A DNA stretch of 64,000 bases from an uncultured Saprospiraceae bacterium (GTDB taxonomy: Bacteria; Bacteroidota; Bacteroidia; Chitinophagales; Saprospiraceae), in the NCBI GenBank assembly GCA_938015435.1, contig CALLPN010000002.1:62001-126000 (forward strand), given 5' to 3'. Both the position numbers and the translations under genes were made by a program. The notes under the pieces were generated by a model. That model was given only the letters and a program-made list of their open reading frames with translations. It did no database searches and was not told the DNA's origin. Shown here piece by piece: positions 36,251 through 56,115 of this stretch (the stretch's first letter is position 1; every line of letters starts with the position of its first letter).

Positions 36251-37924
36251 TTAAAAACCCACATCTCCACTCCTAATTAAAGTCCCTTTTTCATCATAAT
36301 ACTCTCTTTTAATAGTAAAGTATTGTTCACAAGGGTCAGCTATATTTTTTCTCTCTTCTACCTCTTGCATAGTAGGATAATAGCTTATTGATTCTATAGA
36401 ACTATCTTTCCGATAGCGAATATGCTTTCCAACATTTCTCCCCATATTCATTTCTCCTTCATACAGCTTTTGGTCTGTTCCATAAAACATTTGAATATTA
36501 TAGCCATGTGAAAAGCCATTGACTTTTGGTGCGTTAGTAGATGTAGTATAAACAGTCGTTTCACGGCCATTCTTATAGATTGACTCTTGAATTATGTTTC
36601 CTTCTTTATCATACTCTATGTAAGTCCCATTTTTAGAACCATTTTTATATTCACAATGCTTCCTTACTACACCTTGAGAATCTATTTCTTGTTCTAATCC
36701 ATGCCTCTTGTCATTACGATAAGGAGTGTGTAATCTGCTACCATTATTATAATAATTTACCGACCACTCCAATTCAGAATCGACATTATAATAAAATTCA
36801 ATATCCAATTGGCTATTATAATATTGCCTCCAGATTCCTACTCTCCGTCCATTCTTAAGCACTCCCTTGTATCCTGGACCTGTTCTGCTTCCATATATAA
36901 TAGTTTTCGAAGCGTTAATTTCTGGATAATCATACTCTTCGACATCAACTATTTTACCTAATTTATTAAAGTATTTCCAGACACCTACTTTTTTACCACT
37001 AACATACTCTCCTTCAGCTAATGGGGAAAATGATGTGGAATCTCTCATATTAAAATAATACCCTTCTTTATAATGAATCCAATTCGACTTTCCCCTCTCA
37101 AAGTCTATATACTTTGTGGTATAAGTCTTCACTGTATCACCAGATTCATTCAACGAAGTATACTCAACTAACTTTGTTGTACTTTCAGGATACGTATATA
37201 CCATAAAGCTTCTTTGACTATATATTTCGTATTGAAGCAATCCATCTTTTGTACAACTTTCATAATCCAATATCTTAGTATATTCATCTAATAAGTACTT
37301 GTAGGTCTTTCCCTCTATCTTGCCCAATTTATAATCCATTTCAGCAAAGGTTCTAAGCCTATCCATTTCCCAATTATACCGAAAGTGAGTCCAAGTTCCA
37401 TGAGCTAAACCATCCTTAAATCTTGCTTCTGCATAAACATTACCTTGCGTCGATAAATTGATATTTCCTGAAAACTTATTGCCAACTAATTCAAAATACT
37501 GATTGATAATGTCTATTGATCGCTTTCCTTTAATCGTATCTTTAAGGGCACATGCCTCAGTTCTATTTTCCAATCGTCTTGAAAGATTATAGCATCCTGT
37601 GGTATGATATTTTTGATTTGCTCCTATCTCACTTATAATTAGCCATCGCTCTCCAGCAATTACTATATCACGACCAGTCATTGAACCATCTCCAGTATAT
37701 ATTTCGACAGTATCTGAAGGAACACCACGGTAAACATCTCGTACTATAGCTTTGGTATATCCTAGATTAGATGAAAGTATTTCACAAGTAAAAATATGGT
37801 GCTTAAGTTCTTCATTTGCTAAAACTTCAGTCAGATAATAATTAGGACCACTGCATGTAGATGCTATACCAAAGAATGAGTAGCCGATAAATAATAAACT
37901 TACTACAAATTTCTTCATTTTCAC
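36251..37924 (-). CDS. Secreted MORN-repeat protein
   Basis: A 557-residue exported protein (signal peptide to about GIAST22). The N-terminal part (25-130) holds four Cys and strands that resemble an NTR-like domain. The remainder has MORN-type repeats: EARFKDGLAHGTWTHFRYN, EGEYVSGKKVGVWKYFNKLG, GVLKNGRRVGIWRQYYN, CEYKNGSKNGTYIEYDKEGN. MORN repeats often bind lipid or protein; some such proteins are annotated as antitoxin YwqK, but no toxin is nearby. MATE transporter lies just upstream (18-bp gap) and the two may share a transcript. Confidence 0.8.
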   Translation of the reverse strand: MKMKKFVVSLLFIGYSFFGIASTCSGPNYYLTEVLANEELKHHIFTCEILSSNLGYTKAIVRDVYRGVPSDTVEIYTGDGSMTGRDIVIAGERWLIISEIGANQKYHTTGCYNLSRRLENRTEACALKDTIKGKRSIDIINQYFELVGNKFSGNINLSTQGNVYAEARFKDGLAHGTWTHFRYNWEMDRLRTFAEMDYKLGKIEGKTYKYLLDEYTKILDYESCTKDGLLQYEIYSQRSFMVYTYPESTTKLVEYTSLNESGDTVKTYTTKYIDFERGKSNWIHYKEGYYFNMRDSTSFSPLAEGEYVSGKKVGVWKYFNKLGKIVDVEEYDYPEINASKTIIYGSRTGPGYKGVLKNGRRVGIWRQYYNSQLDIEFYYNVDSELEWSVNYYNNGSRLHTPYRNDKRHGLEQEIDSQGVVRKHCEYKNGSKNGTYIEYDKEGNIIQESIYKNGRETTVYTTSTNAPKVNGFSHGYNIQMFYGTDQKLYEGEMNMGRNVGKHIRYRKDSSIESISYYPTMQEVEERKNIADPCEQYFTIKREYYDEKGTLIRSGDVGF

Positions 37925-37942: not shown

Positions 37943-39235
37943 CTAAGTATCAACTTTCCTCCAATAGATTGTCAATAATACTCCTCTCACAATCAAAAAA
38001 CTAAACATAGCTAACCATAAACCTTGCAATGGATCTTCCATTTCTATAAAATGATACAAGCCCAAGAATACTATCACCGCGACTATCATACTATCTCGCA
38101 TCTGTCTACTGGCCAATAGGCCAATAAAGACACCATCCCATATATAACATGCAAATGCAATAATCGGAAAGACTACCATCCATATTTTGTATCGAAGAGC
38201 AAAATCGATTACATCTTGATCACTAGAGAATAGATGAAGTAATACATCGTAATACATAAAATAAAATAAGGAATATGCAATCGCTAATATCAAACCCCAT
38301 AGAAAAGATAGCTTGACTGATCTACTTAAACTCAAATTGTCATTGGCGCCTTTGTACTTCCCTACCATACTCTCTGCGGCATAAGCAAATCCATCTATAC
38401 CGTAACTCATCCAATTGACAAACTGAAGTAATATAGCATTAGCCGCCAATGCCAATGCACCAGCTATAGACGACTCTCTATAGAAATATGCAAACACGAA
38501 AGTGAGGCAAACTGTACGTATAAATAGATTACTATTTACTTTGAAAAAATCAACCAACTCACTGAATTTCGAAGCCGCTTTGATTAATTCTAAATGAAGA
38601 TATTGGCGATAATTATAAGCTACAGCTGCAAAGCAAAGTAATACGCCAGTATACTGAGCGATGACAGTCCCTAGCGCTACACCTTTGATATCCATTCCGT
38701 ATTGATGGACTAACAAATAGCTAACTATAATATTGACAATATTGATTATAATAGTAATCATCATTGGATATATAGCATTCTGTAATCCAAAAAACCAACC
38801 CATCATTACGTACATCAACATAGTAGCGGGTGCCGCCCACATACGCATTGTGAAATACTCAACGATCAAAGGTGCATGAGTATCCTGAACTGAAAAAAAC
38901 CATGATGCTGCTTGTAACAACCAACCCTGTGTTAGAAAAATTGTAATAGCCAGCAACAGCGCTAAAAGCATACCTCTCACTAAAGTCACTCCCACCTTAT
39001 AATCATCTTGTGCACCATATGCCTGCGCGGTCAATCCAGTAGTTCCCATTCTGAGAAAACCAAAATTCCAATAGACAAAATTAAAGATCATACCCCCTAA
39101 GCCTATTGCACCTAAATGCAATGCTGAGAGCTGACCCATCAAAATAGTATCTACTGTCGATAACAGTGGGATAGAGATATTACTAACGATATTGGGTATC
39201 GCTAGTTTGAGTATTTCTTTGTGCGAAGCTGACAT
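37943..39235 (-). CDS. MATE family efflux transporter
   Basis: A 430-residue inner-membrane protein with twelve hydrophobic helices in two bundles. The start ILKLAIPNIVSNISIPLLSTVDTILMGQL and later WGLILAIAYSLF and VFPIIAFACYIWDGVFIGL are typical of the DinF-like MATE branch. It exports cationic drugs or metabolites using a Na+ or H+ gradient; the substrate is unknown. The first 27 codons and start region have two decayed copies further right (40914-40992 and 42817-42916). Confidence 0.88.
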   Translation of the reverse strand: MSASHKEILKLAIPNIVSNISIPLLSTVDTILMGQLSALHLGAIGLGGMIFNFVYWNFGFLRMGTTGLTAQAYGAQDDYKVGVTLVRGMLLALLLAITIFLTQGWLLQAASWFFSVQDTHAPLIVEYFTMRMWAAPATMLMYVMMGWFFGLQNAIYPMMITIIINIVNIIVSYLLVHQYGMDIKGVALGTVIAQYTGVLLCFAAVAYNYRQYLHLELIKAASKFSELVDFFKVNSNLFIRTVCLTFVFAYFYRESSIAGALALAANAILLQFVNWMSYGIDGFAYAAESMVGKYKGANDNLSLSRSVKLSFLWGLILAIAYSLFYFMYYDVLLHLFSSDQDVIDFALRYKIWMVVFPIIAFACYIWDGVFIGLLASRQMRDSMIVAVIVFLGLYHFIEMEDPLQGLWLAMFSFLIVRGVLLTIYWRKVDT

Positions 39236-39294
39236 GGCTCAAAGGTAGCCATTTGTAACTTGAAGCAAGTTTAGAATCCACTGATAAAAAAGCC

Positions 39295-40503
39295 TTAAAG
39301 TTTGACATGAATAATATACACAAATCGATTGTATTCATTAGCGATAACACTCCCCTCTACTTCCACAGTGTTGTAGTCCTCTATATCAATATTATCTATT
39401 GATGCTTCTTTCATTAGAGGTAGAAGGTTGTTACTCTTTATTGCATAGTTAACGAGATCTGTAGTACTATCTCGATAACCACTACTAACTACACCAATTA
39501 CATTTCCATAATTATCAAACAAAGGTCCACCGCTATTTCCACCTGTTATTGGAGCACTAATTTGATACATAGTATTATCATCACCAAAACCACTAGTGGC
39601 ATTAATAATCCCTTCTGTAATCTTAGCCGTGCTACCCAAAATACTTTGCTTTGGGTAACCTACAACAAATATATCTTTGCCACTAATTGCTTCTTTCATT
39701 TTTATACGATATGGAATATTACCCAAGTTCTTATTCACTTTCAATATTGCCAAATCACTTTCTTTATCAAAGGCTATAACTTTTGCCGTTAGCTTCTCAT
39801 CCATATTTCCATTTACACCCAAAACTTTTATACCTTTCTCATTTTCTATCACATGATAATTTGTCACGATATACCCTTCTTCTGATATTGCAAAACCTGT
39901 ACCTTGTGAACTATCCGCTTTCTTAGGTTTGGCTACTGAAATATAGCTACTCCCTTCTTCGTAATTTGACATAGACCACCCTTCTTCTTTAGAGAAAAAT
40001 TCATTTAGTCCTATGCTCAATTTAGCGTACACACCTTTTCTATTTAACCTTGGATTATCAGAATCAGGATTACCACTATAACCCAATTCAATATTTGCTA
40101 ATGCCGTATTAAATTTGACATAGGCTTCGTAACCAAAAGCTCCGTTGACTTTATCATTATCTAATCTGTCAAATAAATTGTACGTACCATTTACATTTAA
40201 TGTAGTTGTAGCGAATTTCATATGATGAAGTGGTATTCCAAGTCCCATCTTTCCCGTCACGTACAAATTCCTTATTGTCTTTAAAGAATCTCCTAAGGTT
40301 GAGGAAATATCTACACTAGAGTTAAATATTCTATATCTATAACCATTGCTTATGTGTAGAATATTTTCATCGTTCCCCGCATTTTTACTAATTCCAACAT
40401 TCAATCCTCTACTTCCCATATTACTATATTCTGATTTAAGAATACTCTGAGAAAATATTAATGACGAACATAACATTGAAACTAAAAATAATACACACTT
40501 CAT
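39295..40503 (-). CDS. Exported trypsin-like (HtrA-type) serine protease without PDZ domain
   Basis: A 402-residue protein with a signal peptide (to about FSQS20). Residues 21-180 are strand-rich and unlike any common domain, perhaps half a beta-barrel or a new sensor domain. A serine protease domain follows with complete triad: His217 (VTNYHVIE), Asp250 (ESDLAIL), Ser324 (GGNSGGPLFD). No PDZ domain follows; the last 70 residues are short and end in strands. This is gene one of three unrelated exported-protein genes lying between the MATE and ddl genes. Confidence 0.82.
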   Translation of the reverse strand: MKCVLFLVSMLCSSLIFSQSILKSEYSNMGSRGLNVGISKNAGNDENILHISNGYRYRIFNSSVDISSTLGDSLKTIRNLYVTGKMGLGIPLHHMKFATTTLNVNGTYNLFDRLDNDKVNGAFGYEAYVKFNTALANIELGYSGNPDSDNPRLNRKGVYAKLSIGLNEFFSKEEGWSMSNYEEGSSYISVAKPKKADSSQGTGFAISEEGYIVTNYHVIENEKGIKVLGVNGNMDEKLTAKVIAFDKESDLAILKVNKNLGNIPYRIKMKEAISGKDIFVVGYPKQSILGSTAKITEGIINATSGFGDDNTMYQISAPITGGNSGGPLFDNYGNVIGVVSSGYRDSTTDLVNYAIKSNNLLPLMKEASIDNIDIEDYNTVEVEGSVIANEYNRFVYIIHVKL

Positions 40504-40861
40504 ACCTAATTATTTTATTGTAAAAGAATAATTGCATTCACATGGAGATGCATTCATCCACAAAATAACAAATATTCCATTTTAAAAATACTCAACTAAC
40601 AATTAAGTCTATAACAGAATGAAACTTAAAATAGTAGAATCAAGGTCTAACTAGGAAATAGTAGAAATATCTTTACCCTCTAAAATGTTGATCTTCTAAT
40701 AGAACAACATATAATTTAAAGCCATTCGTCCAATAGTTACAAATATCCTTAGAGTTATCTCCTTAGTATTATACTTCCAAAATCCTTCAACAAGCAAATG
40801 ATGAACTGTATTTTAGTAGATTACAAATGAGTCATTGAATACATTGAGCGTTGAACGATCG
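40504..40861. other. Spacer upstream of the protease gene
   Basis: No gene seen. It corresponds in position to the 318- and 332-bp upstream regions of the next two exported-protein genes (ATG to the GATCTC of the ddl-like remnant), but only weak similarity (such as CTAATTATTTTA near 40506 and 44648) is visible. Confidence 0.4.
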
Positions 40862-41004
40862 TAGTATAAGTATAAAAAAGACGATAGAAAGATCTCATTT
40901 GCTGGTGGATATCCCACTGTAGAAAGCAGTGTAATCGAGATTACTTTAACGATAATGGTTATTGCAAATCTGAAAATTTATTTTACGAAGCCAATAATTT
41001 ATAA
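40862..41004. pseudogene. Decayed ddl'/MATE' joint, copy 1
   Basis: About 40872-40905 matches the start of the ddl gene in plus orientation (the 16-bp AGATCTCATTTGCTGG is identical to 44974-44989). From about 40914 to 40992 the DNA matches the 5' end of the MATE gene in its minus orientation (ACTGTaGAaAgCAGTG, TTACT..AACGATAaTGG, CGAAGC aligned with 39153-39230), at roughly 70% identity with small gaps. Start codons are lost. Junction sequence ATATCCC lies between the two parts. Confidence 0.6.
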
Positions 41005-41128
41005 TCCACAAATTGCATCTTTTCCGAAATCAATCCGCAAATTATGTCATATCGAGTTGCAAATCCACACTAACATCCACTATCAATGGACTTAAGCCTT
41101 CATATATTTATATTTGACTCTAAGCTGA

Positions 41129-42475
41129 TTATTCAGTTTTTATAACTTGTTCATACACTTGTACCGATACTGGCCGGCCTCTATTTTTACCTACTTTATA
41201 TTTTGGTAAATTCTCGCTAAAAACTTTAATGAAATAATTTTCAAATTTCTCATTTTCAACCTTGTCTCCTACAGGATAAGAGTAAACATTACCGCTCTTT
41301 GATCTAGGACCTTGATAATTTTGAGAGATTCTAAAATTTTCAACTTTACTATCCTTGGTTACTATGAATTCAAACTTAACTTTGAACAATCTCTTTGGAA
41401 ATTTATCAATTAATTTCTGCGTAAGCTTGTCAAAATATTTTTTATCAATAAGCTTAGGCATCTCTTCAACTACTTTATGAATTTCGTTCTCGTCTACCTT
41501 GTCTGTCTTTTTCATAGCAAGTCGAAACATTTCTTCCATTTCCCTACGAATAGAATCTTTCTGTGCAGGCGTTCTAGCTGCTATTTTTCTTTCCTTTTCC
41601 TGTGATTCTAACTTCTCTAATTTAAATAATTCCATAGCAACACTATCTAAATTTTCTGATTTAATTGAAAACAGATAAGTAACATCTTTCTTGGACCAAT
41701 AGCCTTTTTTATTTATAGTCCATCCCTCAATATCATCAAGGCATTTTGTCAAAATTTGATTCAACTTATAATCAATACTCAATAGGGTCCGTTTTAATGA
41801 AATATGATTTACAGAAGCAATTCCCTTATCGTCAAATTCAAATACAATCGAAACTACATTCAATGATTCTAGAACTTCCGAAGGAACACAATCAATAAAA
41901 TAATTCCGGATGTATCGTTCCGTTTCATCAGACTTCGCACTTTTTCCATTTAAAAATACAGAGTTATTACCATTTGACAGAAAAGCAGAATGTTCAACTA
42001 ATCTAACTTTAGATGTCTTATAGTTTTTTAACGGCTTAATATGCCTCAACATCTCATTTACAACTTCAGTGATTTTTTCGATATTTTCTGTATACTTCCA
42101 ATATCGAATATAGACCCGATCAGTTTTTTTAGGCTTATCAAAATAATTTCCGTCTATCCACACTCCCGTCTCGTCAATATTCTTTTGATCAGAAATTATT
42201 TTAATACCACAAACAATATTGTCTTTATCTGAGACCACCTGAATTGTATCGATATCGGCGAACTTTCCTCTATACTCATCAAGTACAACATAACCACTAA
42301 ATCTATTATTTCTCTGAGAAGTAAGAAGAAATTCCTCAGCAATAGTATCGAGTTGAATATTTACTATTTGGTAATTGAGGGAATCATAGTCTGTTGTTGG
42401 AAATGATAAATTGACTGATTGCGCATCACAGAAAAATGTTTGAACCAATAGATAAAATATAATTATTCCTTTCAT
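41129..42475 (-). CDS. Exported protein of unknown function
   Basis: A 448-residue protein when started at ATG 42475, which gives a good signal peptide (MKGIIIFYLLVQTFFCDAQS); an upstream ATG at 42523 would bury it behind 16 polar residues. The body is rich in Lys, Glu, Asp and Ile with alternating strands and helices. The segment YIRNYFIDCVPSEVLESLNVVSIVF and the end (LFKVKFEFIVTKDSKVENFRIS) resemble TonB-like C-terminal strands, but not clearly. Second of the three exported-protein genes in the MATE-ddl interval. Confidence 0.65.
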   Translation of the reverse strand: MKGIIIFYLLVQTFFCDAQSVNLSFPTTDYDSLNYQIVNIQLDTIAEEFLLTSQRNNRFSGYVVLDEYRGKFADIDTIQVVSDKDNIVCGIKIISDQKNIDETGVWIDGNYFDKPKKTDRVYIRYWKYTENIEKITEVVNEMLRHIKPLKNYKTSKVRLVEHSAFLSNGNNSVFLNGKSAKSDETERYIRNYFIDCVPSEVLESLNVVSIVFEFDDKGIASVNHISLKRTLLSIDYKLNQILTKCLDDIEGWTINKKGYWSKKDVTYLFSIKSENLDSVAMELFKLEKLESQEKERKIAARTPAQKDSIRREMEEMFRLAMKKTDKVDENEIHKVVEEMPKLIDKKYFDKLTQKLIDKFPKRLFKVKFEFIVTKDSKVENFRISQNYQGPRSKSGNVYSYPVGDKVENEKFENYFIKVFSENLPKYKVGKNRGRPVSVQVYEQVIKTE

Positions 42476-42677
42476 ATCATTTTTTTTTGCATCATTAATT
42501 ATCGTTGCATTATTACTCTTCAAATATAATAATGTTTACCCTTATCTTATGGAAGATCCGAATTAAATCACGAATACGTAATATTACGTATCTTCCTCTT
42601 AATCATGGGACCATTTTAAACATTCCTCTTATTGTACTTTTAATTTCAGTCAAGCAACTAACCATGAAGCACATATT

Positions 42678-42930
42678 ATACAATAATTCATTCGAACTGA
42701 TCAATTATTATAAGTAAAGAGCTAATTACCGCTAGATTTAAAGAAAATCAAAATAGAGTGTTTTTTGGTAGAGCGTCGCAGAAGAAAGAAGGATCTCATT
42801 TATCGAAATCCCTTTTCAATGTCGATAACAGAAGGATGAAGATATTACTAACAATATTGGGGATCGCCAGATTGAATATTTCATTATGAGAAGTTGACAT
42901 ATTACAAAGGTTGCTATTATGATGTTATGC
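42678..42930. pseudogene. Decayed ddl'/MATE' joint, copy 2
   Basis: 42678-42802 matches the ddl upstream region and first codons (44858-44983): GTAAAGAGCT, AATTAC, TTTTTTGG and GATCTCATTT are kept while the ATG is changed to TTT. From 42817 to 42916 it matches the 5' end of MATE in minus orientation (compare 39153-39255): TGTCGATAACAG, AGATATTACTAAC, ATATTGGG, TGACAT with the start codon CAT at 42898-42900 aligned to 39233-39235. Identity is roughly 75-80%. Reading frames are broken, so neither is a gene. Confidence 0.85.
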
Positions 42931-42984
42931 AACAGCTTTCATCACTAACCAATATATATCTTAAGTAAGAAACCTTCAACCAAA

Positions 42985-44643
42985 TCAATACTTTACAAAT
43001 TTCGCTGAATACTCTTTTTCCTGAGCTTCTACAATAATAAAATACACCCCAGAAGAAAAATCATTAACATCAAGTTGGATATATTCTTCATTGATCAATT
43101 CAGTGATAGATTTTACCAAAATTCGACTTCCTAGATAATTGAAAACTGAGACATTGACTTCACCAGTATAGCTAATTGGAATATTAAGAACATTAGATAC
43201 AGGGTTAGGAAAAACTTTTAATTCACCTATCTCAAATGAAGAAGACCTTCTTATAACTTTAATTTTGGAGCGATCACTTACCGACAAATAACTCATATCA
43301 ATTTTCGCATCATCTATAAGATATACATGAAGTTGCAGTCCATCAACATAACTATTTAAAAACGCTCCTTCTATAAATTTAAGCTCCCCACCTTTTTCGA
43401 CATAACACTTGGGCTGACCTTTGTTTTTTCTTTGGTTAAATGTAAAATTACCTCCAATCAATAAACTTGAATTCTCTTCAACATTAATGGTTGCGTCATC
43501 ATAGAGTGCTAGCATACCAATAGAATTTTTTCCAACTTGAAGTTCATCTTGCTGAATGTGTATTGAGCTACCATACTCTATTCTAATACATGCTTCTCTC
43601 GATTTCAATTCTATTTCAGAATCATTCCTAAAGAATAAATCCACATTGTTGCCACTTACTAATTCAACTATCTGTACGCACATTCCGTTATTATCGAATA
43701 TAAAATTTACATTGTGTCTAATAGAATCATCACCCTCGACTAACTCTCCTCTCAATTCTACGTAATCCTGAAGAAACACACTCATATAATCTTCAGAAAA
43801 CAAATTTATAGTTTGCTGAACATCTTGTTTTTCTTCTAGGATTACTTCTATATAATCTATATTATCACTGGATGGACAAGCTCCATTGTTGTGTTGAAGA
43901 ATCACTATTTCGTTCTGAAAAAGTTCTCCTAATTGTGCGCTGTAAGTATCGTCATCCACTCTATACAATTCTGAAACTGATATTTCATTTTCTATAGATG
44001 CACCCCACCAGTCTTCCCATACACCGAAAGAAGGCAAATACAATTTATTTTGAGTTCCTGGATCATCATCAATCACTATTTTTATCATTACATCTACCAA
44101 ATATTGCTCTTCGATATTTTGAGATACGAAGCAAGATTCGATTCCTTCACATTCTGGATAATAATATTCTCTCACTTTAGATTGATCATTCCCGTCTTCA
44201 TCTTTTGAATATTTCACTTTTAAACTCAACAACGTACAATCATCATTTGAACAATCATTGCCATCAAGTAAATCATGATTAGAGAATGGCATTCGCGAAA
44301 TTAGATAATGCAACTGGTTGGCAAGAATAGGATATTGCAAAGAATCCTGAAGTCTCAGTTTGACAAAAATCGGCTTAGTTATGTCTATATTTTCTAGACT
44401 AACATATTCATCCGGTCCTTCTTGTTCAACGACAAAACATTGAGTACTATCTATAGGACTATTAATTCCACCATCAAGAGTCTGAAAGATATTAAAGTCT
44501 CGTAATTGAGTAATGACTTGAGTAGAAGTAGGATCGAAATCACATATTCTATCTTCCATCTGATATGTTGAAGGCAACTGCCCCAGTAGCAATGAATGAA
44601 AACTAAAGAATAGTACTGCGTATATAAAAGATGATCTTTTCAT
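42985..44643 (-). CDS. Secreted protein with T9SS type A sorting domain
   Basis: A 552-residue exported protein (signal peptide to about LLGQL22). The body (30-470) holds Asp/Cys-rich strands of unknown fold, such as YYYPECEGIESCFVSQNIEE and EARIRIEYGS-like beta strands; a middle stretch has the sequence of a short repeated beta-prism or beta-helix (INVEENSSLLIGGNFTFNQRK). The last 75 residues (FEIGELKVFPNPVSNVLNIP to AKFVKY) are a type A T9SS sorting domain. Third of the exported-protein genes in the MATE-ddl interval. Role unknown. Confidence 0.8.
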   Translation of the reverse strand: MKRSSFIYAVLFFSFHSLLLGQLPSTYQMEDRICDFDPTSTQVITQLRDFNIFQTLDGGINSPIDSTQCFVVEQEGPDEYVSLENIDITKPIFVKLRLQDSLQYPILANQLHYLISRMPFSNHDLLDGNDCSNDDCTLLSLKVKYSKDEDGNDQSKVREYYYPECEGIESCFVSQNIEEQYLVDVMIKIVIDDDPGTQNKLYLPSFGVWEDWWGASIENEISVSELYRVDDDTYSAQLGELFQNEIVILQHNNGACPSSDNIDYIEVILEEKQDVQQTINLFSEDYMSVFLQDYVELRGELVEGDDSIRHNVNFIFDNNGMCVQIVELVSGNNVDLFFRNDSEIELKSREACIRIEYGSSIHIQQDELQVGKNSIGMLALYDDATINVEENSSLLIGGNFTFNQRKNKGQPKCYVEKGGELKFIEGAFLNSYVDGLQLHVYLIDDAKIDMSYLSVSDRSKIKVIRRSSSFEIGELKVFPNPVSNVLNIPISYTGEVNVSVFNYLGSRILVKSITELINEEYIQLDVNDFSSGVYFIIVEAQEKEYSAKFVKY

Positions 44644-44921
44644 GGTTCTAATTATTTTAATCCTTCTAAAGCTACGAATATCTACATGAGGGTTTTTAAT
44701 TTACTGTTAGAAAAGTCTCATTCGACACAACAGTATTTGGCAGTTTCTACTTGGAAACAAATAATCGCTAATCTCCAACGAATACTAATCAATTAATTAG
44801 TTATAAATAGCTTCCTATATATTTACTACAAATAGGTTAATCTTAAAGGGGGATAGAAACATAACAATTCACCATAATTGATTAATTTTGCTAATACGTA
44901 AAGAGCTGATTACTAGTAGAC

Positions 44922-47609
44922 ATGAAGAAGATCAAAGTAGGAATATTTTTTGGAGGACCATCGAGGGAGAGAGAGATCTCATTTGCTGGAGGTCGTACTG
45001 TATATGACAATCTCAATAAAGACATATTTGAGGCGGTGCCCATATTTGTAGATAGCCACCAAACACTTATAGAACTCAATTGGGAATATATCTACAAAGG
45101 TACTATCAGAGATTTCTATCCGCCTGCGGCATATCAGTCCGCTGGAGATAGTGATTATCAGATATATGTAGAATCTCTAGGGCCGATCGATAGCTATGAT
45201 TATGATTCTTTAGTTAGTCAAGTAGGTAAGCGAATCTCTTGGGATGAGGTACAATCTAAGATAGATATCGCATTCCTTGCTCTCCATGGGAGCTTTGGAG
45301 AAGACGGACAGATACAATCTATCTGCGATGCTAGAGGGATAGCATATACGGGGTCTGGTGTGTTGCCTTGTGCAATAGGTATGGATAAGTACACTCAAAA
45401 AAATCTAATGGAAGCGGCAGGCTTTCATTGTCCAGAGATACTAGCGATCACTCGTGAAGAGTGGATTAATAGCACAGAAGCTGAAATCGATGCTCTCTTT
45501 ACTCGATCCAAAGAAGCAATCGGATCGACTATGGTTATTCGTCCGAGCAATCAAGGAAGTAGTATCGGAGTAAGTATACTCAAAGCGGTCGACCTCAAGA
45601 CTTATAGAGATTCTATAGATGCTGCGTTTTTTGTAGGGCACCTTGACGCTCAAAATTGGAAGGCATATAATGATGAAGAAAAACATAATTGGGCGGTAGA
45701 AGTATCAGACATCCGTGGAGGGATAGGTTTCCCTGTACAGATAGCTGAGAAAACCATCTATCATCCTCAAGCATTGGTTCAATACGTTGATAGCCATCTG
45801 AAGTCTCACGACTCGTGCACTATCGAAGGTCATATGACTGAGCAAAGGGTTATCGTAGAGTCATTTATCGATGGAAGAGAATTTTCGTGTATCGTACTGC
45901 GTAATGAAGATCAAAATGCCGTAGCATTACCACCGACTGAGATCGTAAAATCTGGTGAAGTATATGATTATAGATCAAAGTACCTTCCTGGATTATCTCG
46001 AAAAATCACACCAATAGCCGTATCTGATGATTACCTTAAAGCGATCAGATCAGAATGTGAAAAACTCTATGATTATCTAGGTTTCCATACTTACGCGAGG
46101 ATTGATGGATTTATCAATGCAGAAGGAAAGATATTTTTGAATGATCCCAATACGACTTCAGGGATGCTACCCTCTTCATTCTTTTTTCATCAGGCGGCAG
46201 AGATTGGGTTGAATCCTAGTCAGTTTTTAAGTTTTATCATTAGATGTTCTGTCCAAGAGCGTCTCAAGGACCAACTGCATCTCAGAGGACATAAGCAATT
46301 ACTCCAGCGTATCGACGTTTCGCTAGAGAAGCTGCAGAAGGAAGAAAGCCAAAAGAAAAAAGTAGCGGTCATCATGGGTGGATACTCATTCGAGAGACAT
46401 ATATCCATGGAAAGTGGTCGTAACATCTATGAAAAGCTAGCAAGCTCAGATGGATATGAACCGATCCCTATGTTTTTAATGAAAGACGGAGATAGCCATA
46501 AGTTATATAAGATACCCGTAAAAATGCTACTCAAGGATAATGCTGATGATGTAAGAGATAAGATCTTAGGATATTCTGTACATCCTGTGATACAACAGAT
46601 CCAAGGAGAGTGCAAAGCCATCATGGATAGATACTTAGATGCGAGTTATATATCTGAGCCCTCAGAAATCAGCTATCCGCAATTGGCGGAGGAAGTAGAT
46701 GTAGCATTTATAGCGCTACATGGAAGGCCTGGAGAAGATGGTACTGTACAAGCGAAACTGAGAGCCCATGGCATTGTTCATAATGGATCGCTAGCAGAAT
46801 CAGCAGCAAAAACAATAGATAAATACGAAACGCTACAAATACTCAAGAGTAATGGATTTACAGTAGCCAATCAATTTGTGATCTCTCAAGAAAGCTATGA
46901 GAGAGATGCAGATCAAGCTATATCTAATATGACTGAGCTGATCGGTGGATTCCCAATCATAGCTAAGCCTATGGATGATGGATGTAGTTCAGCAGTCCGT
47001 AAGATCAAGTCTGCGGACGAACTCAAAGTATATCTTAAAGGATTATTTCGTGCTGATTGGGAGATGTCGCCTGAGTTGAGATCCGAACTAAATCTCAACT
47101 ATAATGAGGAATTCCCTATGAAGCCAGAAGTGCTTTGCGAACAACTCATCGATAGAGGTGACGCAGACCATTTCCTTGAGATCACTGGGGGTATGTTGAC
47201 TCATATGGAAGGTGACCAAGTAAGATTTGAAATATTCGAACCCTCAGAAGCATTAGCCACAGGTGAGGTATTATCTCTAGAAGAAAAATTCTTAGCTGGA
47301 GAGGGACAGAATATTACACCGGCTAGATTTAGCGAAGACCCAGAGAAATTTAGAGCAATATCTGACCAAGTGAGGGCTGACCTACAACGAGCCGCAGAGC
47401 TACTAGATGTCCGTGGATACTCTAGGATAGACGCGTTTGTAAAGATAAAAGGAGACGACGTAGAAACAATTGTCATCGAAATCAATTCGTTACCTGGTAT
47501 GACGCCTGCTACTTGCATTTTTCATCAGTGTGCCATTAATGGATATAAGCCTTATGAATTTATTGATAAAATATTGCAATTTGCAGTCCAGCGTGACTTT
47601 CCTTTGTAA
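44922..47609 (+). CDS. ddl: Double-length D-alanine-D-alanine ligase (two fused ligase domains)
   Basis: An 895-residue cytoplasmic protein made of two ATP-grasp ligase modules (about 1-450 and 479-895) joined by a helical linker; ordinary Ddl has 300-370 residues. Module 1 has GGPSREREIS, ALHGSFGEDG, YDYRSKY and NDPNTTSGM, but Arg207 (VIRPSNQGSS) replaces the usual ATP-binding Lys and Asp408 the usual Glu. Module 2 has GGYSFERHIS, ALHGRPGEDG, the Lys (AKP) and canonical EINSLPGMT, but Phe790 (EEKF) replaces the omega-loop Tyr. The product joins two D-Ala for peptidoglycan; one module may differ in substrate. PASTA gene follows. Confidence 0.88.
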   Translation: MKKIKVGIFFGGPSREREISFAGGRTVYDNLNKDIFEAVPIFVDSHQTLIELNWEYIYKGTIRDFYPPAAYQSAGDSDYQIYVESLGPIDSYDYDSLVSQVGKRISWDEVQSKIDIAFLALHGSFGEDGQIQSICDARGIAYTGSGVLPCAIGMDKYTQKNLMEAAGFHCPEILAITREEWINSTEAEIDALFTRSKEAIGSTMVIRPSNQGSSIGVSILKAVDLKTYRDSIDAAFFVGHLDAQNWKAYNDEEKHNWAVEVSDIRGGIGFPVQIAEKTIYHPQALVQYVDSHLKSHDSCTIEGHMTEQRVIVESFIDGREFSCIVLRNEDQNAVALPPTEIVKSGEVYDYRSKYLPGLSRKITPIAVSDDYLKAIRSECEKLYDYLGFHTYARIDGFINAEGKIFLNDPNTTSGMLPSSFFFHQAAEIGLNPSQFLSFIIRCSVQERLKDQLHLRGHKQLLQRIDVSLEKLQKEESQKKKVAVIMGGYSFERHISMESGRNIYEKLASSDGYEPIPMFLMKDGDSHKLYKIPVKMLLKDNADDVRDKILGYSVHPVIQQIQGECKAIMDRYLDASYISEPSEISYPQLAEEVDVAFIALHGRPGEDGTVQAKLRAHGIVHNGSLAESAAKTIDKYETLQILKSNGFTVANQFVISQESYERDADQAISNMTELIGGFPIIAKPMDDGCSSAVRKIKSADELKVYLKGLFRADWEMSPELRSELNLNYNEEFPMKPEVLCEQLIDRGDADHFLEITGGMLTHMEGDQVRFEIFEPSEALATGEVLSLEEKFLAGEGQNITPARFSEDPEKFRAISDQVRADLQRAAELLDVRGYSRIDAFVKIKGDDVETIVIEINSLPGMTPATCIFHQCAINGYKPYEFIDKILQFAVQRDFPL

Positions 47610-48577: not shown

Positions 48578-48886
48578 ATGATAGATATTGAAATACCGGA
48601 ATTGAAAGCCAAGATAGACGCTAAAGAAAATTTTCTTTTCATCGATGTAAGAGAGCCTTTCGAATATGCTGAATATAATCTTGGAGCAAAGCTAATTCCT
48701 CTAGGCAATCTAGTAGGGGCACTGAACGAACTTGAGCCCTACAAAGAAAAAGAAATAATAATCCATTGTAGATCTGGCATGCGAAGTAATACAGCAAAAA
48801 ACATGTTGGCCGAATTAGGTTACAAAAACGTTAGAAATGTTTTGGGTGGAATACTAGAATGGCAGAGACTGTATGTAAATCCTTAG
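48578..48886 (+). CDS. Single-domain rhodanese-like sulfurtransferase
   Basis: A 102-residue rhodanese domain with active-site Cys in IIHCRSGMRSNT and the start FIDVREPFEYAEYNL. It handles persulfide sulfur or acts as a thiol-redox protein in the cytoplasm. It starts 28 bp after the PASTA gene, so it is probably in the ddl transcript. The stop overlaps the end of the convergent regulator gene by 4 bp. Confidence 0.9.
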   Translation: MIDIEIPELKAKIDAKENFLFIDVREPFEYAEYNLGAKLIPLGNLVGALNELEPYKEKEIIIHCRSGMRSNTAKNMLAELGYKNVRNVLGGILEWQRLYVNP

Positions 48887-49605
48887 TCTTTTTTCTTAGA
48901 TTTTTTTTTGGTTGACTTAGATATTCCCCTGAGGTGAACTCTCATTGCATTTTTTGCACCTTTAGCATCTTGCTCAATGATCTTATCTACAATATCTCTG
49001 TGCTCTTTTAGCAAAGCTTTTTTTCGCCCTTTTTTGATTAACGATTGATTTCTATTTTTTTGCATCACATCTGGAGTTATTATTTTCATCAATAACTTCA
49101 GAACTGAATTGCCTCCTACTTCAGCGATTTGAAGGTGCAATCGAAAATCCTCTTCTTTGGCTGAATCTCCTTGCGCAATCTTATCTTCAAACGCTTTTAA
49201 AGCCTTTTGGATAAGAACTATATCTGCATCTGTTCTTTTTAATGCCGCCATTCCAGCAGACTTTATTTCAAGTAGATTTCTAGTTTCTGCCATGGAAGCG
49301 AAATCAGCTTCTTCAAAATTAAGTATCTCAGTCATTAAACTTTCAAACGCTAATAATCCACTACCTTTAATTTTGGTTCCAGATTGAGGTTCAGTTTTTA
49401 CCATACCATAAAACTCCAATCTCTTTATAGCATCTCTTATTGTTAGTCTACCAACATTGAGCTCTTCAGCTAATTTTCTTTCAGAAGGCAATGTATCCCC
49501 AGGAGCTAATTCTCCATTCGTTATCATATTCCTTAAGTGATCCATTACCATTTTTACTGGTTGCTGATTTTTCTTTTCATTAGATTGTTCGTTCATACTC
49601 CTCAT
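48883..49605 (-). CDS. FadR-family (GntR superfamily) transcriptional regulator
   Basis: A 240-residue DNA-binding regulator. The winged helix (20-90) has the GntR signature NGELAPGDTLPSERKLAEEL followed by GRLTIRDAIKRLEFYG. The all-helical FCD ligand domain follows (FASMAETRNLLEIKSAGMAA to LLKEHRDIVDKI). His residues of FCD metal/ligand sites are partly visible (RLHLQIAEVGG, EHRDIV). A lysine-rich tail (KSTKKKSKKKD) is unusual. Likely senses a small carboxylic acid; the target genes are not near. ATGs at 49605 and 49596 are both possible. Confidence 0.85.
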   Translation of the reverse strand: MRSMNEQSNEKKNQQPVKMVMDHLRNMITNGELAPGDTLPSERKLAEELNVGRLTIRDAIKRLEFYGMVKTEPQSGTKIKGSGLLAFESLMTEILNFEEADFASMAETRNLLEIKSAGMAALKRTDADIVLIQKALKAFEDKIAQGDSAKEEDFRLHLQIAEVGGNSVLKLLMKIITPDVMQKNRNQSLIKKGRKKALLKEHRDIVDKIIEQDAKGAKNAMRVHLRGISKSTKKKSKKKD

Positions 49606-51736: not shown

Positions 51737-54700
51737 ATGTTTAAAACCAAGCTTACAAAAATTGTAAATAAAAAAACATTTTTAAAAATTGTCTTTTTAT
51801 TCGTTCTGTCAACTATGACCTCAACGGTGGCAATCACTCAAAATAGTATTGCTCAACCCGTTGACTATGAATACTATAGTACAGTTCAATGGAGAAATCT
51901 CGGCCCAAATCGAGGGGGAAGATCATGCGCGGTGGCTGGAGTCCCAGGAAAACCTAATTTATTTTATTTCGGCGCGACTGGTGGCGGTGTATGGAAAACT
52001 CTGGACGGAGGTAGATCATGGGATAATATATCAGATGGTTTTTTTGGTGGATCGGTAGGAAGTATTGCAGTAGCACCTTCTGACGGCAACGTGATCTACG
52101 TCGGCGGTGGAGAAAAAACAGTAAGAGGAAATGTATCCTATGGCTATGGCGTATGGAAATCTGTAAATGCAGGTAAAACATGGACGCAAGCAGGCTTACC
52201 AAAAAGTAGACATATCTCTAGAATCCGTATTCACCCGACCAATCCAGATATCGTATTCGCAGCAGTGATGGGTGATCTATTTAAAGATACTCCAGACCGA
52301 GGTATATACAAAAGTATCAATGGTGGTAAGACTTGGAAGAAAGTACTATACAGCAATGCTAGTTCTGGCGCTGTAGATCTTCTCATAGATCCTACCAATC
52401 ATCGCATCATGTACGCTAACACATGGACGATCCGAAGAACACCATACAGTCTATCTAGTGGTGGCGAAGGTTCCGCTATGTACAAAAGTACTGATGGTGG
52501 AGAAACATGGATCGACATCAGCAAAAATGAAGGCCTCCCAAAAGGAACATGGGGAATATCTGGTATCGCTGTATCGCCACTCAATGGAGAGCGAATGTGG
52601 GCTATCATCGAGAATGATAAAGGTGGAGTATACAGATCTGACAATGGTGGTGAAACTTGGAAGAAACTAAATGACCAAAGAGAACTTAGACAAAGAGCAT
52701 GGTACTACACAAGAATCTATGCTGATACTGAAGATGAAAATACCGTCTATGTAATGAATGTCCGTTATCATAAATCTACAGATGGTGGAAAGACTTTTTC
52801 TGCGAATCGTGCTCCGCATGGAGACCATCATGATTTATGGATCGCTCCAGAAGATCCAAGTCGTATGATCATAGGTGATGACGGTGGAGCACAAGTAACA
52901 TATGATGGTGGCGAGACATGGAGTACTTATCATAATCAACCTACTTCACAGTTTTATAGAGTGACTACGGACAATCACTTCCCTTATCGGATCTATGCCG
53001 CTCAGCAAGATAATAGTACGATCAGAATTGCCCATAGGACCACTGGAAGGTCTATAGGTGAAGATGATTGGGAACAGACTGCAGGAGGCGAATCTGCGCA
53101 TATCGCTATAGATCCAGAAGATAATGAAATCGTATATGGAGGAAGCTATGATGGATTTCTCACTCGTTACAATCACAAGACCGGAGATATTAGAGCAATC
53201 AATGTATGGCCTGATAATCCTATGGGCCACGGTGCCGAAGGTATGAAATATAGATTCCAATGGAATTTTCCGATTTTCTTTTCCCAGCATAATTCTAATA
53301 GATTGTATACCGCATCACAGCATCTCCATGTAACAGAAGACGAAGGTCAAACATGGAAAATAATATCTCCTGATCTCACCCGTAATGAATCCGAAAAACT
53401 AGTCTCATCTGGTGGACCGATCACGCAAGACAACACAAGTGTGGAATATTACGCTACCATATTTGCAGCTGCAGAATCTCCAGTCAAGGAAGGAGTTATC
53501 TGGGTCGGTAGTGATGATGGACGATTACATGTAACGCAAGACGGCGGTAACAATTGGACCGATATCACCAGTAGTAAAATGCCAAAGTATCTAATGATCA
53601 ATAGTATCGATCCAAGCCCATTTGACGAAGCCACATGCTATATCGCAGGCACTATGTATAAGTCTGGTGATTACAAACCGTATCTATTCAAAACGAATAA
53701 CTACGGTAAGTCATGGACGCAGATTACTACAGGAATACCTAATGATCATTTTACAAGAGTAATAAGATCGGATAAATCTCAAAAAGGATATCTGTATGCA
53801 GGTGGAGAATCAGGAATGTACATCAGCCGCAATGATGGTAAATCTTGGGAATCACTTCAACTCAATATGCCTATAGTACCTGTGACGGATTTAGCAGTAA
53901 AAGGAAATCACCTAATCGCAGCGACTCAAGGTAGAGGCCTATGGATTATAGATGATCTACATATACTCAAGCAAGCTAGTGACAAGAAAGGTAACAGTGA
54001 TTTCGTATATGCTCCGGACATCTCATATCGCATGTCTGGCTCAGCTCCTAAAGATGCGAAAGGCGCTGGCGTGAATCATTCTGGAGGGGTTAGTATTCAC
54101 TATTATCTAGATCAATATGATGCTAAAAAAGACACCGTTTCGATAAGCTATTTGCAGGGTGCAGATACCATCGTTACATACTCTACTCACGCCGCACAGA
54201 AAAGCTTTAAACTTAAAGATATCGAGCAAGGCGCTAATAAGCATAGATGGAATATGCGCTACCCTACCGCCAAAAAATTTGATGGCATGATACTATGGTG
54301 GGGAAGTACTAATGGAGCTATGGTAGCACCTGGTACCTATACCGCTTCCATTGATGTTAATGGAAAGACATTGTCTACCCCATTCCAAATTGAGAAAAAT
54401 CCGAATACTGAACAGACCGCAAAAGATATAGAAGCCCAAGTTACATTTGTCCAATCTATCAACGACAAAGTAACGGAAGCTCACGAAGCCATTATTGATA
54501 TCAGATCTCTACGTAAACAAATAAAAGCTTACGTAGGTAAATCAAAAGAAGATCAGCTCATCGCAGAATCTGAAAAGATAGATAGCATTATGACTATAGT
54601 GGAAGAAGCGCTCTATCAGACCAAAAACAGAAGCGGTCAAGATCCTCTAAATTTCCCAATTAGACTTACTAATAAACTAGCCCATCTCAATTCACTCACT

Positions 54701-54874
54701 CAAATGGGTACTAACGATTATCCACCAACTGCCGCAGCGATAGCCGTCCGAGATGAGCTAGTAATGGCCATAGATAATCAACTATCCACATGGGCAGAAG
54801 TAAAAAGCAAAATGATACCTCAATTCAATCAAATGATAAGAGATAAAGCACTTGATGTCATTATTATTGAATAA
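51737..54874 (+). CDS. Large secreted sortilin/VPS10-like beta-propeller protein (BNR repeats)
   Basis: A 1045-residue exported protein (signal peptide to about AITQN35). Over about 50-760 it has many Asp-box/BNR repeats of the form S.DGG.TW: KTLDGGRSWDNIS, KSVNAGKTWTQA, KSINGGKTWKKV, KSTDGGETWIDI, RSDNGGETWKKL, VTYDGGETWSTY and others, giving one or two beta-propellers. A C-terminal beta-sandwich (about 800-900) and a coiled-coil tail follow. Proteins of this type are abundant in Bacteroidota and are called glycosyl hydrolase or sortilin-like; a catalytic role is not demonstrated by the motifs. No T9SS domain. Confidence 0.85.
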   Translation: MFKTKLTKIVNKKTFLKIVFLFVLSTMTSTVAITQNSIAQPVDYEYYSTVQWRNLGPNRGGRSCAVAGVPGKPNLFYFGATGGGVWKTLDGGRSWDNISDGFFGGSVGSIAVAPSDGNVIYVGGGEKTVRGNVSYGYGVWKSVNAGKTWTQAGLPKSRHISRIRIHPTNPDIVFAAVMGDLFKDTPDRGIYKSINGGKTWKKVLYSNASSGAVDLLIDPTNHRIMYANTWTIRRTPYSLSSGGEGSAMYKSTDGGETWIDISKNEGLPKGTWGISGIAVSPLNGERMWAIIENDKGGVYRSDNGGETWKKLNDQRELRQRAWYYTRIYADTEDENTVYVMNVRYHKSTDGGKTFSANRAPHGDHHDLWIAPEDPSRMIIGDDGGAQVTYDGGETWSTYHNQPTSQFYRVTTDNHFPYRIYAAQQDNSTIRIAHRTTGRSIGEDDWEQTAGGESAHIAIDPEDNEIVYGGSYDGFLTRYNHKTGDIRAINVWPDNPMGHGAEGMKYRFQWNFPIFFSQHNSNRLYTASQHLHVTEDEGQTWKIISPDLTRNESEKLVSSGGPITQDNTSVEYYATIFAAAESPVKEGVIWVGSDDGRLHVTQDGGNNWTDITSSKMPKYLMINSIDPSPFDEATCYIAGTMYKSGDYKPYLFKTNNYGKSWTQITTGIPNDHFTRVIRSDKSQKGYLYAGGESGMYISRNDGKSWESLQLNMPIVPVTDLAVKGNHLIAATQGRGLWIIDDLHILKQASDKKGNSDFVYAPDISYRMSGSAPKDAKGAGVNHSGGVSIHYYLDQYDAKKDTVSISYLQGADTIVTYSTHAAQKSFKLKDIEQGANKHRWNMRYPTAKKFDGMILWWGSTNGAMVAPGTYTASIDVNGKTLSTPFQIEKNPNTEQTAKDIEAQVTFVQSINDKVTEAHEAIIDIRSLRKQIKAYVGKSKEDQLIAESEKIDSIMTIVEEALYQTKNRSGQDPLNFPIRLTNKLAHLNSLTQMGTNDYPPTAAAIAVRDELVMAIDNQLSTWAEVKSKMIPQFNQMIRDKALDVIIIE

Positions 54875-54899
54875 ATGAAGTAATCCAAATCAAGTCATT

Positions 54900-54939
54900 A
54901 AAGACCTTCAAAGTTGTAAAATACTTTGAGGGTCTTTTG
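54900..54939 (+). terminator. Terminator after the sortilin-like gene
   Basis: Stem AAAGACC(T)TCAAAGT/ACTTTGA(G)GGTCTTT (54900-54914, 54923-54937) with an 8-nt loop and a following T-rich run (TTTTGCTTG). 26 bp after the stop. Confidence 0.85.
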
Positions 54940-54979
54940 CTTGAGAAACAATAGATATGACGTTAATGTAGGTGATGCA

Positions 54980-55030
54980 TTGAATATTTGTATAAAATTG
55001 ACTATTTTTGTCATGTTTATTTTAGTCAAT
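54980..55030 (+). promoter_or_regulatory. Promoter with overlapping operator-like inverted repeat (HTH-Fic gene)
   Basis: TTG (54980-54982) and TATTTTTG (55003-55010) are 20 bp apart and fit the -33/-7 pattern. An inverted repeat ATTGACTA (54997-55004)/TAGTCAAT (55023-55030) covers the -7 element and the predicted start (about 55017). It is a natural place for the encoded HTH domain to bind. Confidence 0.6.
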
Positions 55031-55038
55031 ACATTAGA

Positions 55039-56115
55039 ATGGTTACTTTAGGATTTAGAATTCGAGAAATACGAAAGGCTCATAGCATGACTATAAGAGA
55101 TCTAGCTACTGCTGTAGATCTTGACCAAGCACTTATTAGTAAGTATGAGAATGACAAAAGGTATCCGCCAGAAGATCATATACAAGCAATAGCAAAAAGA
55201 TTTCCTGAGTGTAACGATGCGATTATGACACAGTGGATCAGTGATAAGATCTATCAAACAGTAAAAAAATATCCGAACTATGCAGAGCAGGCTATTGCTG
55301 TAGCCGAAGAGCGTATCGCCTACTTATCCAAAGCACAGGCTATGGAAGCTCCAGCGTTGGATGCCCAAATCATAGCTAAAATTGCACGAGTAGATGTCCT
55401 GCATACCCAATGGAACAATCTAAGACCTATACAAGGTATTGCTTTAGAGAAAATGAAAGAACACTTCAGAATAGCATATACACACGAAAGCAATAAAATA
55501 GAAGGCAATACTCTGACTCTCCAAGATACATTCTTAGTAATCAGTGAAGGACTCACTATTAGTGGTAAAACTATGACTGAGCACCTGGAAGCCATCAATC
55601 ATTCTGATGCTATAGAATTTGTAGATGATATAGTCAGTCGTAAAGAGGAGCTCTCTAGCCGTACCGTGAATGAAGTACACTCATTAGTATTGCGTGGAAT
55701 AGATACGACTAATGCAGGAATATATCGCACAGTAAGCGTCATGATCAGTGGCAGTACACATCGTCCGCCAGAGCCATATAAGTTAGGCAGCCATATGGAA
55801 GATTATTTCCAGTTTTATGAGAGAAATAAGGATGTAATCCATCCTGTTATACTAGCGGCAGAGATGCACGAAAGATTAGTGACCATCCATCCTTACATCG
55901 ATGGCAATGGACGCACTAGTAGATTGATAATGAACCTCATTTTACTTAGACATGGGTACACTATAGCTAATCTCAAAGGCGATAATGAGTCACGCATGAA
56001 ATACTATAGAGCACTTAACAAAGTGCAATCAGATCATGACTCTACCGCTTTCTATCATCTCATATTGGAAGCAGAGATAGAATCTCTTCAAGAGCATATC
56101 CGATTAGTAGAATAG
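55039..56115 (+). CDS. Fic family protein with N-terminal XRE helix-turn-helix
   Basis: A 358-residue protein. An XRE-type HTH at 1-55 (FRIREIRKAHSMTIRDLATA, LISKYENDKRYP) is followed by a helical region and a Fic domain. It has the complete core HPYIDGNGRTSR (284-295) and the class II inhibitory motif SNKIEGN (151-157, Glu155) that blocks ATP binding until relieved. Active Fic enzymes transfer AMP to protein hydroxyls. ATG 55039 is chosen over TTG 54988 because the HTH begins there and a promoter with operator overlaps the region before. Target unknown; related HTH-Fic proteins are widely found in Bacteroidota. Confidence 0.9.
   Translation: MVTLGFRIREIRKAHSMTIRDLATAVDLDQALISKYENDKRYPPEDHIQAIAKRFPECNDAIMTQWISDKIYQTVKKYPNYAEQAIAVAEERIAYLSKAQAMEAPALDAQIIAKIARVDVLHTQWNNLRPIQGIALEKMKEHFRIAYTHESNKIEGNTLTLQDTFLVISEGLTISGKTMTEHLEAINHSDAIEFVDDIVSRKEELSSRTVNEVHSLVLRGIDTTNAGIYRTVSVMISGSTHRPPEPYKLGSHMEDYFQFYERNKDVIHPVILAAEMHERLVTIHPYIDGNGRTSRLIMNLILLRHGYTIANLKGDNESRMKYYRALNKVQSDHDSTAFYHLILEAEIESLQEHIRLVE

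What the first reader, a model, noticed from the sequence alone, without database searches (positions are those of the whole stretch)
39153..45010. A cassette-like array: MATE'-gene-ddl' units each carrying a different exported-protein gene
The two joints divide the MATE-ddl interval into three slots. Each slot holds one minus-strand gene for an exported protein: HtrA-like protease, unknown protein, T9SS protein. The three are not similar to each other. Distances from gene start to the ddl-like GATCTC are alike (388, 317 and 332 bp). Simple triplication would give paralogues, so different genes seem to have entered the same locus flanked by the same divergent gene ends, one behind another. Additive homologous recombination of alternative alleles of one hotspot is a plausible mechanism; a dedicated cassette mechanism with the joint as recombination site is more speculative.
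Basis: partly seen in the sequence, partly recalled or inferred. Interest (0 to 1): 0.8.

Follow-up and report, generated by a model that had tools for sequence, protein, structure and literature searches.

The report
Stacked foreign genes in one gap
In this uncultured Saprospiraceae bacterium, three unrelated, recently acquired genes sit one behind another in a gap that is empty or holds a single different gene in its nearest relatives, and decayed copies of the two neighbouring gene starts between them show that the gap was duplicated in tandem.

Summary
Between MATE (37943-39235, -) and ddl (44922-47609, +) two joints each carry a decayed ddl 5' end followed by a decayed MATE 5' end. Joint 2 is unequivocal (MATE' E=5.7e-18, ddl' E=2e-9); joint 1 is weaker but supported (E=1.3e-6 and 0.0087). 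Both joints have nearly the same breakpoints, in one register. The three slot genes (trypsin/HtrA-type, unknown, T9SS-tailed) are unrelated. None has an orthologue in three sister species. Two sisters have an empty gap (221-224 bp). No integrase, transposase, tRNA or conserved joint core is present. Slot interiors share nothing, while the joints retain 73-81% identity. Best reading: a gene-acquisition hotspot without a mobile element between two core genes, whose borders were tandemly duplicated twice, with a different foreign gene now in each unit. Whether content was exchanged by homologous recombination or inserted into copies made empty cannot be settled. A dedicated cassette mechanism is unsupported. 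A scan of 1.58 Mb (about one third) of the genome found no second such array. It is an unusual, readable variant of a known kind.

The parts
37943..39235 (-). MATE transporter gene; left border of the hotspot
   Evidence: MatE E=2.5e-35; orthologues 87-92% identical in three sister species
39295..40503 (-). Slot 1 gene: trypsin/HtrA-type serine protease domain (residues ~200-340) with an unassigned N-terminal half
   Evidence: Trypsin_2 E=9e-28; only domain-level hits (up to 42% identity) in 60 related genomes, none of them an orthologue; GC at the 8th percentile
40883..40921 (+). Joint 1, decayed ddl 5' end (ddl')
   Evidence: nhmmer E=0.0087 in 64 kb; 88% over 26 bp
40914..40991 (-). Joint 1, decayed MATE 5' end (MATE')
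   Evidence: nhmmer E=1.3e-6
41129..42475 (-). Slot 2 gene: predicted exported protein of unknown family (ORF open from 42523)
   Evidence: no Pfam or NCBIfam family; no homologue in 60 related genomes; GC at the 2nd percentile
42685..42801 (+). Joint 2, decayed ddl leader and 5' end; start codon lost, 1-bp frameshift, promoter -7 box lost
   Evidence: nhmmer E=2e-9; alignment
42816..42943 (-). Joint 2, MATE 5' end and upstream flank; still reads as a 34-codon open frame
   Evidence: nhmmer E=5.7e-18; translation
42985..44643 (-). Slot 3 gene: exported protein with a type IX secretion sorting tail
   Evidence: Por_Secre_tail E=1.5e-12; no orthologue in sister species, distant full-length relatives at 23-28%
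44847..44921 (+). Conserved ddl leader/promoter (TAATTTTG box); the only part of the gap conserved between species
44922..47609 (+). Fused double D-Ala-D-Ala ligase gene (ddl); right border of the hotspot
   Evidence: Dala_Dala_lig_N and _C, more than one stretch each; 87-91% identical in sister species

Best explanation
The divergent MATE-ddl gap is a gene-acquisition hotspot without a mobile element, bordered by two core genes. In this lineage a segment running from about MATE codon 33 through the gap to about ddl codon 21 was duplicated in tandem, which created the ddl'|MATE' joint once. The joint was copied again in a second duplication, probably by RecA-dependent unequal exchange. The units ended up holding different single foreign genes because incoming homologous DNA carrying other genes between MATE and ddl ends recombined into individual units. 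The genes lie in the MATE strand, downstream of a private upstream region and just before the MATE start. After stacking, the internal gene ends became dispensable and decayed while the genes kept intact frames. Shown: the joints, their like breakpoints, unrelated slot interiors, empty or single-gene gaps in sisters, absence of orthologues. Inferred: one joint-forming event, entry by homologous exchange, natural transformation or transduction as the source. The shared core (hotspot, tandem-duplicated borders, separately acquired genes) I hold at about 0.85; the exchange step is the uncertain part.
For: Joints confirmed by profile. Both MATE' remnants begin at the same profile position. Best-fit breakpoints are ddl 44984 / MATE 39138 (joint 2) and ddl 44992-45002 / MATE 39146-39159 (joint 1), all in the same register to within about 3 bp, so independent breaks are unlikely. 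Sister gaps: G001 about 224 bp and G002 about 221 bp, empty; G003 774 bp with one unrelated 192-aa minus-strand gene whose stop overlaps the MATE start. No orthologue of any slot gene in three sisters; low GC. The non-leader part of the gap is unalignable among the three slots and among all species (z<2.7), while most neighbouring gaps stay alignable (z about 5-175) and the joints keep 73-81% identity. Joint 2 is younger than the species split: MATE' differs from own MATE at 11/69 sites, against about 45% of third positions between species, and it shares six private bases with own MATE versus two with any sister. MATE-ddl adjacency is older than the genus.
Against: No population data: no second strain of this species, so neither exchange nor unit number can be watched. 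The sister with one gene has no joint, so acquisition does not need duplication. No excess of third-position divergence at the MATE or ddl ends next to the hotspot, as recent flank recombination could leave. Remnants of 80-120 bp are short for RecA. Other gaps nearby also gain lone genes, so this one may not be exceptionally hot.
Confidence: 0.48

Rival explanations
1. Empty triplication first: a short segment of about 370 bp (MATE start, 220-bp gap, ddl start) was tandemly triplicated, and single genes later inserted independently into each of the three gap copies by illegitimate recombination.
For: Sister G003 shows insertion of one gene into an unduplicated gap. Short tandem duplications at gene ends are common here: 29 noncoding copies of gene ends lie within 300 bp of the gene in 1.58 Mb, none at 6-12 kb; one bare example is C2:215669-215808 / 215824-215961, 89%.
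Against: The old gap DNA should survive beside the genes in all three slots with the same 73-81% identity as the joints; it is undetectable (z<1.2). At another lone-gene insertion nearby (GntR, 48883-49605) the ancestral gap DNA did survive on one side (z about 97-104). Deletion during insertion could rescue this model.
Confidence: 0.3
2. Differential loss: a unit already holding all three genes was triplicated and each copy lost a different pair.
For: Simple tandem duplication needs no exchange; it fits the like joints.
Against: No trace of the other genes in any slot's noncoding DNA. Three clean deletions are needed, each leaving a gene near both borders. Sisters carry none of the three genes.
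Confidence: 0.1
3. A dedicated cassette system: the ddl'|MATE' joint is a recombination site through which circular one-gene cassettes enter and leave.
For: Same order, orientation and breakpoints in both joints; one gene per unit.
Against: No recombinase in the array, no conserved core in the joints (about 17 bp of unrelated filler), no tRNA or known RNA. The sister's gene has no joint. No second array in 1.58 Mb.
Confidence: 0.04
4. True paralogues or one old operon that diverged beyond recognition.
For: Similar spacing and orientation of the three genes.
Against: Different domains (trypsin, T9SS tail, none), no pairwise similarity, joints still 73-81% alike, sisters lack all three genes.
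Confidence: 0.02

Closest known systems
Hotspots of horizontal gene transfer between core genes, lacking mobile elements (Oliveira et al. 2017, PMC5635113)
   Same: Variable foreign genes between conserved core genes, no integrase; the proposed mechanism is double homologous recombination in the flanking core genes.
   Different: Known hotspots are described as gene turnover between intact core genes; here the core-gene ends themselves are copied and left as dead borders between successive acquisitions. 'Tandem' does not occur in that paper.
Transformation-generated merodiploids (Johnston et al. 2013, PMC3784515)
   Same: A tandem duplication made during homologous uptake, carrying two different versions of the locus, through alternative pairing and unequal crossing-over.
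   Different: Those duplications are about 100-900 kb and start from existing repeats; here the unit is small, ancient, decayed and fixed, and no pre-existing repeat is visible.
Additive and replacement flexible genomic islands (Lopez-Perez et al. 2014, PMC4033161)
   Same: Different genes at one place in related genomes; replacement islands are exchanged by homologous recombination.
   Different: Additive islands are attributed to integrases or transposases; this locus is additive without either.
Orphan toxin/immunity module arrays of CDI and Rhs loci (Poole et al. 2011, PMC3150448)
   Same: Unrelated modules stacked behind one another with partial copies of a conserved region; tandem duplication followed by recombination is proposed there too.
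   Different: Here borders come from two unrelated housekeeping genes and no toxin/immunity logic is visible.

Membership tests
Core-gene-flanked HGT hotspot without mobile element | Conserved core genes on both sides in related genomes | tested here: met
   MATE and ddl orthologues adjacent in all three sisters and in several other Saprospiraceae
Core-gene-flanked HGT hotspot without mobile element | Different accessory genes in the same gap in different genomes | tested here: met
   0, 0, 1 and 3 genes in four species, none shared; G031 carries another gene plus a tRNA
Core-gene-flanked HGT hotspot without mobile element | More acquired genes than chance for the genome (formal hotspot threshold) | tested here: inconclusive
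   Only four genomes of the genus; other gaps nearby also vary
Core-gene-flanked HGT hotspot without mobile element | Raised homologous recombination in flanking core genes | tested here: inconclusive
   No third-position peak at the flank ends, but the species are too far apart for the test
Transformation-generated merodiploid | Tandem duplication of a locus with different content in the copies | tested here: met
   Two joints with like breakpoints, three different genes
Transformation-generated merodiploid | Repeat at the duplication ends that allows alternative pairing | tested here: not met
   Only a 6-bp shared word (TACTGT) near the breakpoints, expected in 11% of random window pairs
Integron-like or other site-specific cassette array | Conserved recombination site between cassettes | tested here: not met
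   Joint cores differ; remnants are ordinary gene ends
Integron-like or other site-specific cassette array | Linked recombinase gene | tested here: not met
   None among the ORFs of the array or its borders

The most novel reading that the evidence does not exclude
The joint is an active, self-regenerating exchange unit: units of one gene plus joint leave as circles or linear fragments and recombine into the MATE'/ddl' borders of other cells, so that lineages add and swap single exported-protein genes at this locus without any recombinase of their own.
Probability: 0.05. Interest if true: 0.8.

Novelty: new variant of a known kind. Interest (0 to 1): 0.42.

Why it matters
How bacteria gain single genes at fixed places without mobile elements is mostly inferred from statistics on intact gaps. 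Here the history is left in the DNA: copies of the border genes mark each step, so the number of steps, their breakpoints and their relative age can be read. If the stacking is confirmed in other strains, it would give a concrete route by which a replacement hotspot becomes additive. It would also provide a simple signature (swapped gene-start remnants between unrelated genes) to search for in other genomes.

Tried and rejected
(1) Joint as a site-specific core: rejected, the two joint cores differ. (2) Microhomology as cause: TACTGT occurs in both genes near the breakpoints, but such sharing is expected in 11% of random window pairs. (3) Remnants imported from a sampled sister species: joint-2 MATE' is closest to own MATE (11 differences versus 15-19) and shares six private bases with it, two with G003; 8 of 11 differences are at third positions, a weak hint of time spent as a coding allele, inconclusive. 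(4) A genome-wide habit: a scan of 1.58 Mb found local gene-end copies, but these are short tandem repeats, paralogue arrays, and repeats around a RAYT-like and a DUF559-like gene, judged by eye. (5) Homology of the upstream regions of the three genes: none; only a shared 12-bp AT-rich stretch next to the start of slots 1 and 3. (6) Recombination peaks in the flanks: none. (8) A first search with the middle gene failed through a wrong frame and was repeated.

Full report
What is there. MATE (37943-39235, -) and a fused double ddl (44922-47609, +) are 5.69 kb apart. Between them lie three minus-strand genes and two joints. Each joint is, from left to right, a decayed ddl 5' end followed by a decayed MATE 5' end. 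That order is swapped relative to the natural MATE...ddl order and is the mark of a tandem duplication of a segment that begins inside MATE and ends inside ddl.

Is it more than chance. A blind repeat search found the pieces. Profiles of the MATE and ddl starts from four species gave E=5.7e-18 and 1.3e-6 (MATE') and 2e-9 and 0.0087 (ddl') at exactly the joints, and nothing else of note except the internal second half of ddl. Joint 1 rests on weaker matches, but its two pieces have the same order, orientation and almost the same breakpoints as joint 2. When all chimeras of ddl and MATE are fitted, joint 2 is best explained by ddl up to 44984 joined to MATE from 39138, and joint 1 by ddl up to 44992-45002 joined to MATE from 39146-39159. 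The offsets agree to about 3 bp. Two independent breaks would hardly fall in one register, so I infer one joint-forming event that was later copied, with decay blurring the breakpoints.

The three genes. Slot 1 has a trypsin/HtrA-type domain (Trypsin_2, E=9e-28), slot 3 a T9SS sorting tail (E=1.5e-12), slot 2 no known family. They are unrelated to each other. None has an orthologue in the three sister species. The slot-2 protein has no hit in 60 related genomes, and the other two have only hits to the common protease domain or sorting tail, or distant relatives at 23-42% identity. Their GC is low for the genome (2nd to 8th percentile). They are therefore later arrivals, not diverged copies of one ancestral gene.

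The same gap in relatives. G001 and G002 have an empty gap of about 221-224 bp. G003 has a 774-bp gap with one minus-strand gene of 192 codons, whose stop codon overlaps the MATE start and which has no relative in the other genomes. None of these has a joint. MATE and ddl are divergent neighbours in other genera too, with gaps of 116-535 bp, and in G031 with 1.87 kb holding another gene and a tRNA-like sequence seen by eye. It is not the only variable gap in the neighbourhood: GntR (48883-49605) is absent from all three sisters, the gene at 36251-37924 is shared only with G003, and the genes at 51737-56115 are missing in G002.

Flanks related, interiors unrelated. Most neighbouring gaps can still be aligned between the species (z about 5 to 175). 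The MATE-ddl gap, apart from the 75-bp ddl leader, cannot be aligned between any two species, not even the two empty ones (z below 2.7), nor between any two of the three slots (z below 1.2), although the joints beside them retain 73-81% identity. A few other short gaps are also unalignable, for instance between the dCTP deaminase and PPT genes, so fast drift is not excluded. The contrast inside one genome, decayed but recognisable borders against wholly unrelated contents, is the best argument that contents arrived or were exchanged as blocks of gene plus upstream DNA.

Age. Joint-2 MATE' differs from own MATE at 11 of 69 sites, whereas third positions differ at about 45% between the species. 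Joint 2 therefore postdates the species split. Joint 1 looks older. The ddl' of joint 2 has lost its start codon, frame and promoter box; the MATE' of joint 2 still reads as 34 codons. The genes are intact over 400-550 codons while the borders have decayed by 19-27%, so they are either kept by selection or arrived later than the joints.

Mechanism. Best supported is a hotspot of the type described by Oliveira et al. (PMC5635113), in which foreign genes enter by homologous recombination in flanking core genes, combined with tandem duplication of the locus of the kind that transformation can cause (PMC3784515). The close rival is that a short empty segment was triplicated first and each copy received a gene. 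Short tandem duplications at gene ends are common in this genome (29 within 300 bp in 1.58 Mb), but the old gap DNA expected beside each gene was not found. At the GntR insertion nearby it was found. A dedicated cassette system is unsupported: no recombinase, no conserved joint core, no tRNA or known RNA in this array, no joint in G003, no second array in about one third of the genome.

Limits. One strain of this species only; about one third of its genome scanned; no reads; metagenome collection not available. The genome is a draft, but the two joints differ from each other and lie deep inside a 406-kb contig, so an assembly artefact is unlikely. Signal peptides and the RAYT-like and DUF559-like names in the passing notes were judged by eye.

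Noticed in passing
window 48883-49605: A GntR-type regulator gene lies between the PASTA-domain gene and the dCTP deaminase gene only in this species; the ancestral gap DNA is preserved on its left side (z about 97-104), not on its right.
   Followed up: partly
window 42787-42900: The MATE' remnant of joint 2 is still an open frame of 34 codons (MSTSHNEIFNLAIPNIVSNIFILLLSTLKRDFDK) with mostly third-position differences from MATE.
   Followed up: partly
window 44922-47609: ddl is a fusion of two complete D-Ala-D-Ala ligase units (895 aa), found also in other Saprospiraceae, Hymenobacter and other Bacteroidota and usually followed by a PASTA-domain gene.
   Followed up: no
G000:C2:389039-389488 (locus L123): A lone gene that looks like a DUF559-type protein is flanked by repeats of 150-190 bp, 87-88% identical; family judged by eye.
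   Followed up: no
G000:C3:320301-320960 (locus L140): A lone gene that looks like a RAYT/Y1 transposase lies between three copies of a 140-160-bp sequence, which also covers the downstream flank of the neighbouring gene; family judged by eye.
   Followed up: no
G000:C2:215669-215961 (locus L114): A bare tandem duplication of about 140 bp (89%) between two minus-strand genes, without any inserted gene.
   Followed up: no
window 51737-56115 and locus L053: The sortilin-like and Fic-type genes are absent in G002, where the PPT-like gene and the gene at 56203 are only about 380 bp apart.
   Followed up: no
L054 and L075, between MATE and ddl: In another Saprospiraceae lineage the MATE-ddl gap (518-535 bp) is filled with repeated and inverted GAATCGCTGCGCTTGTT-like units.
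   Followed up: no
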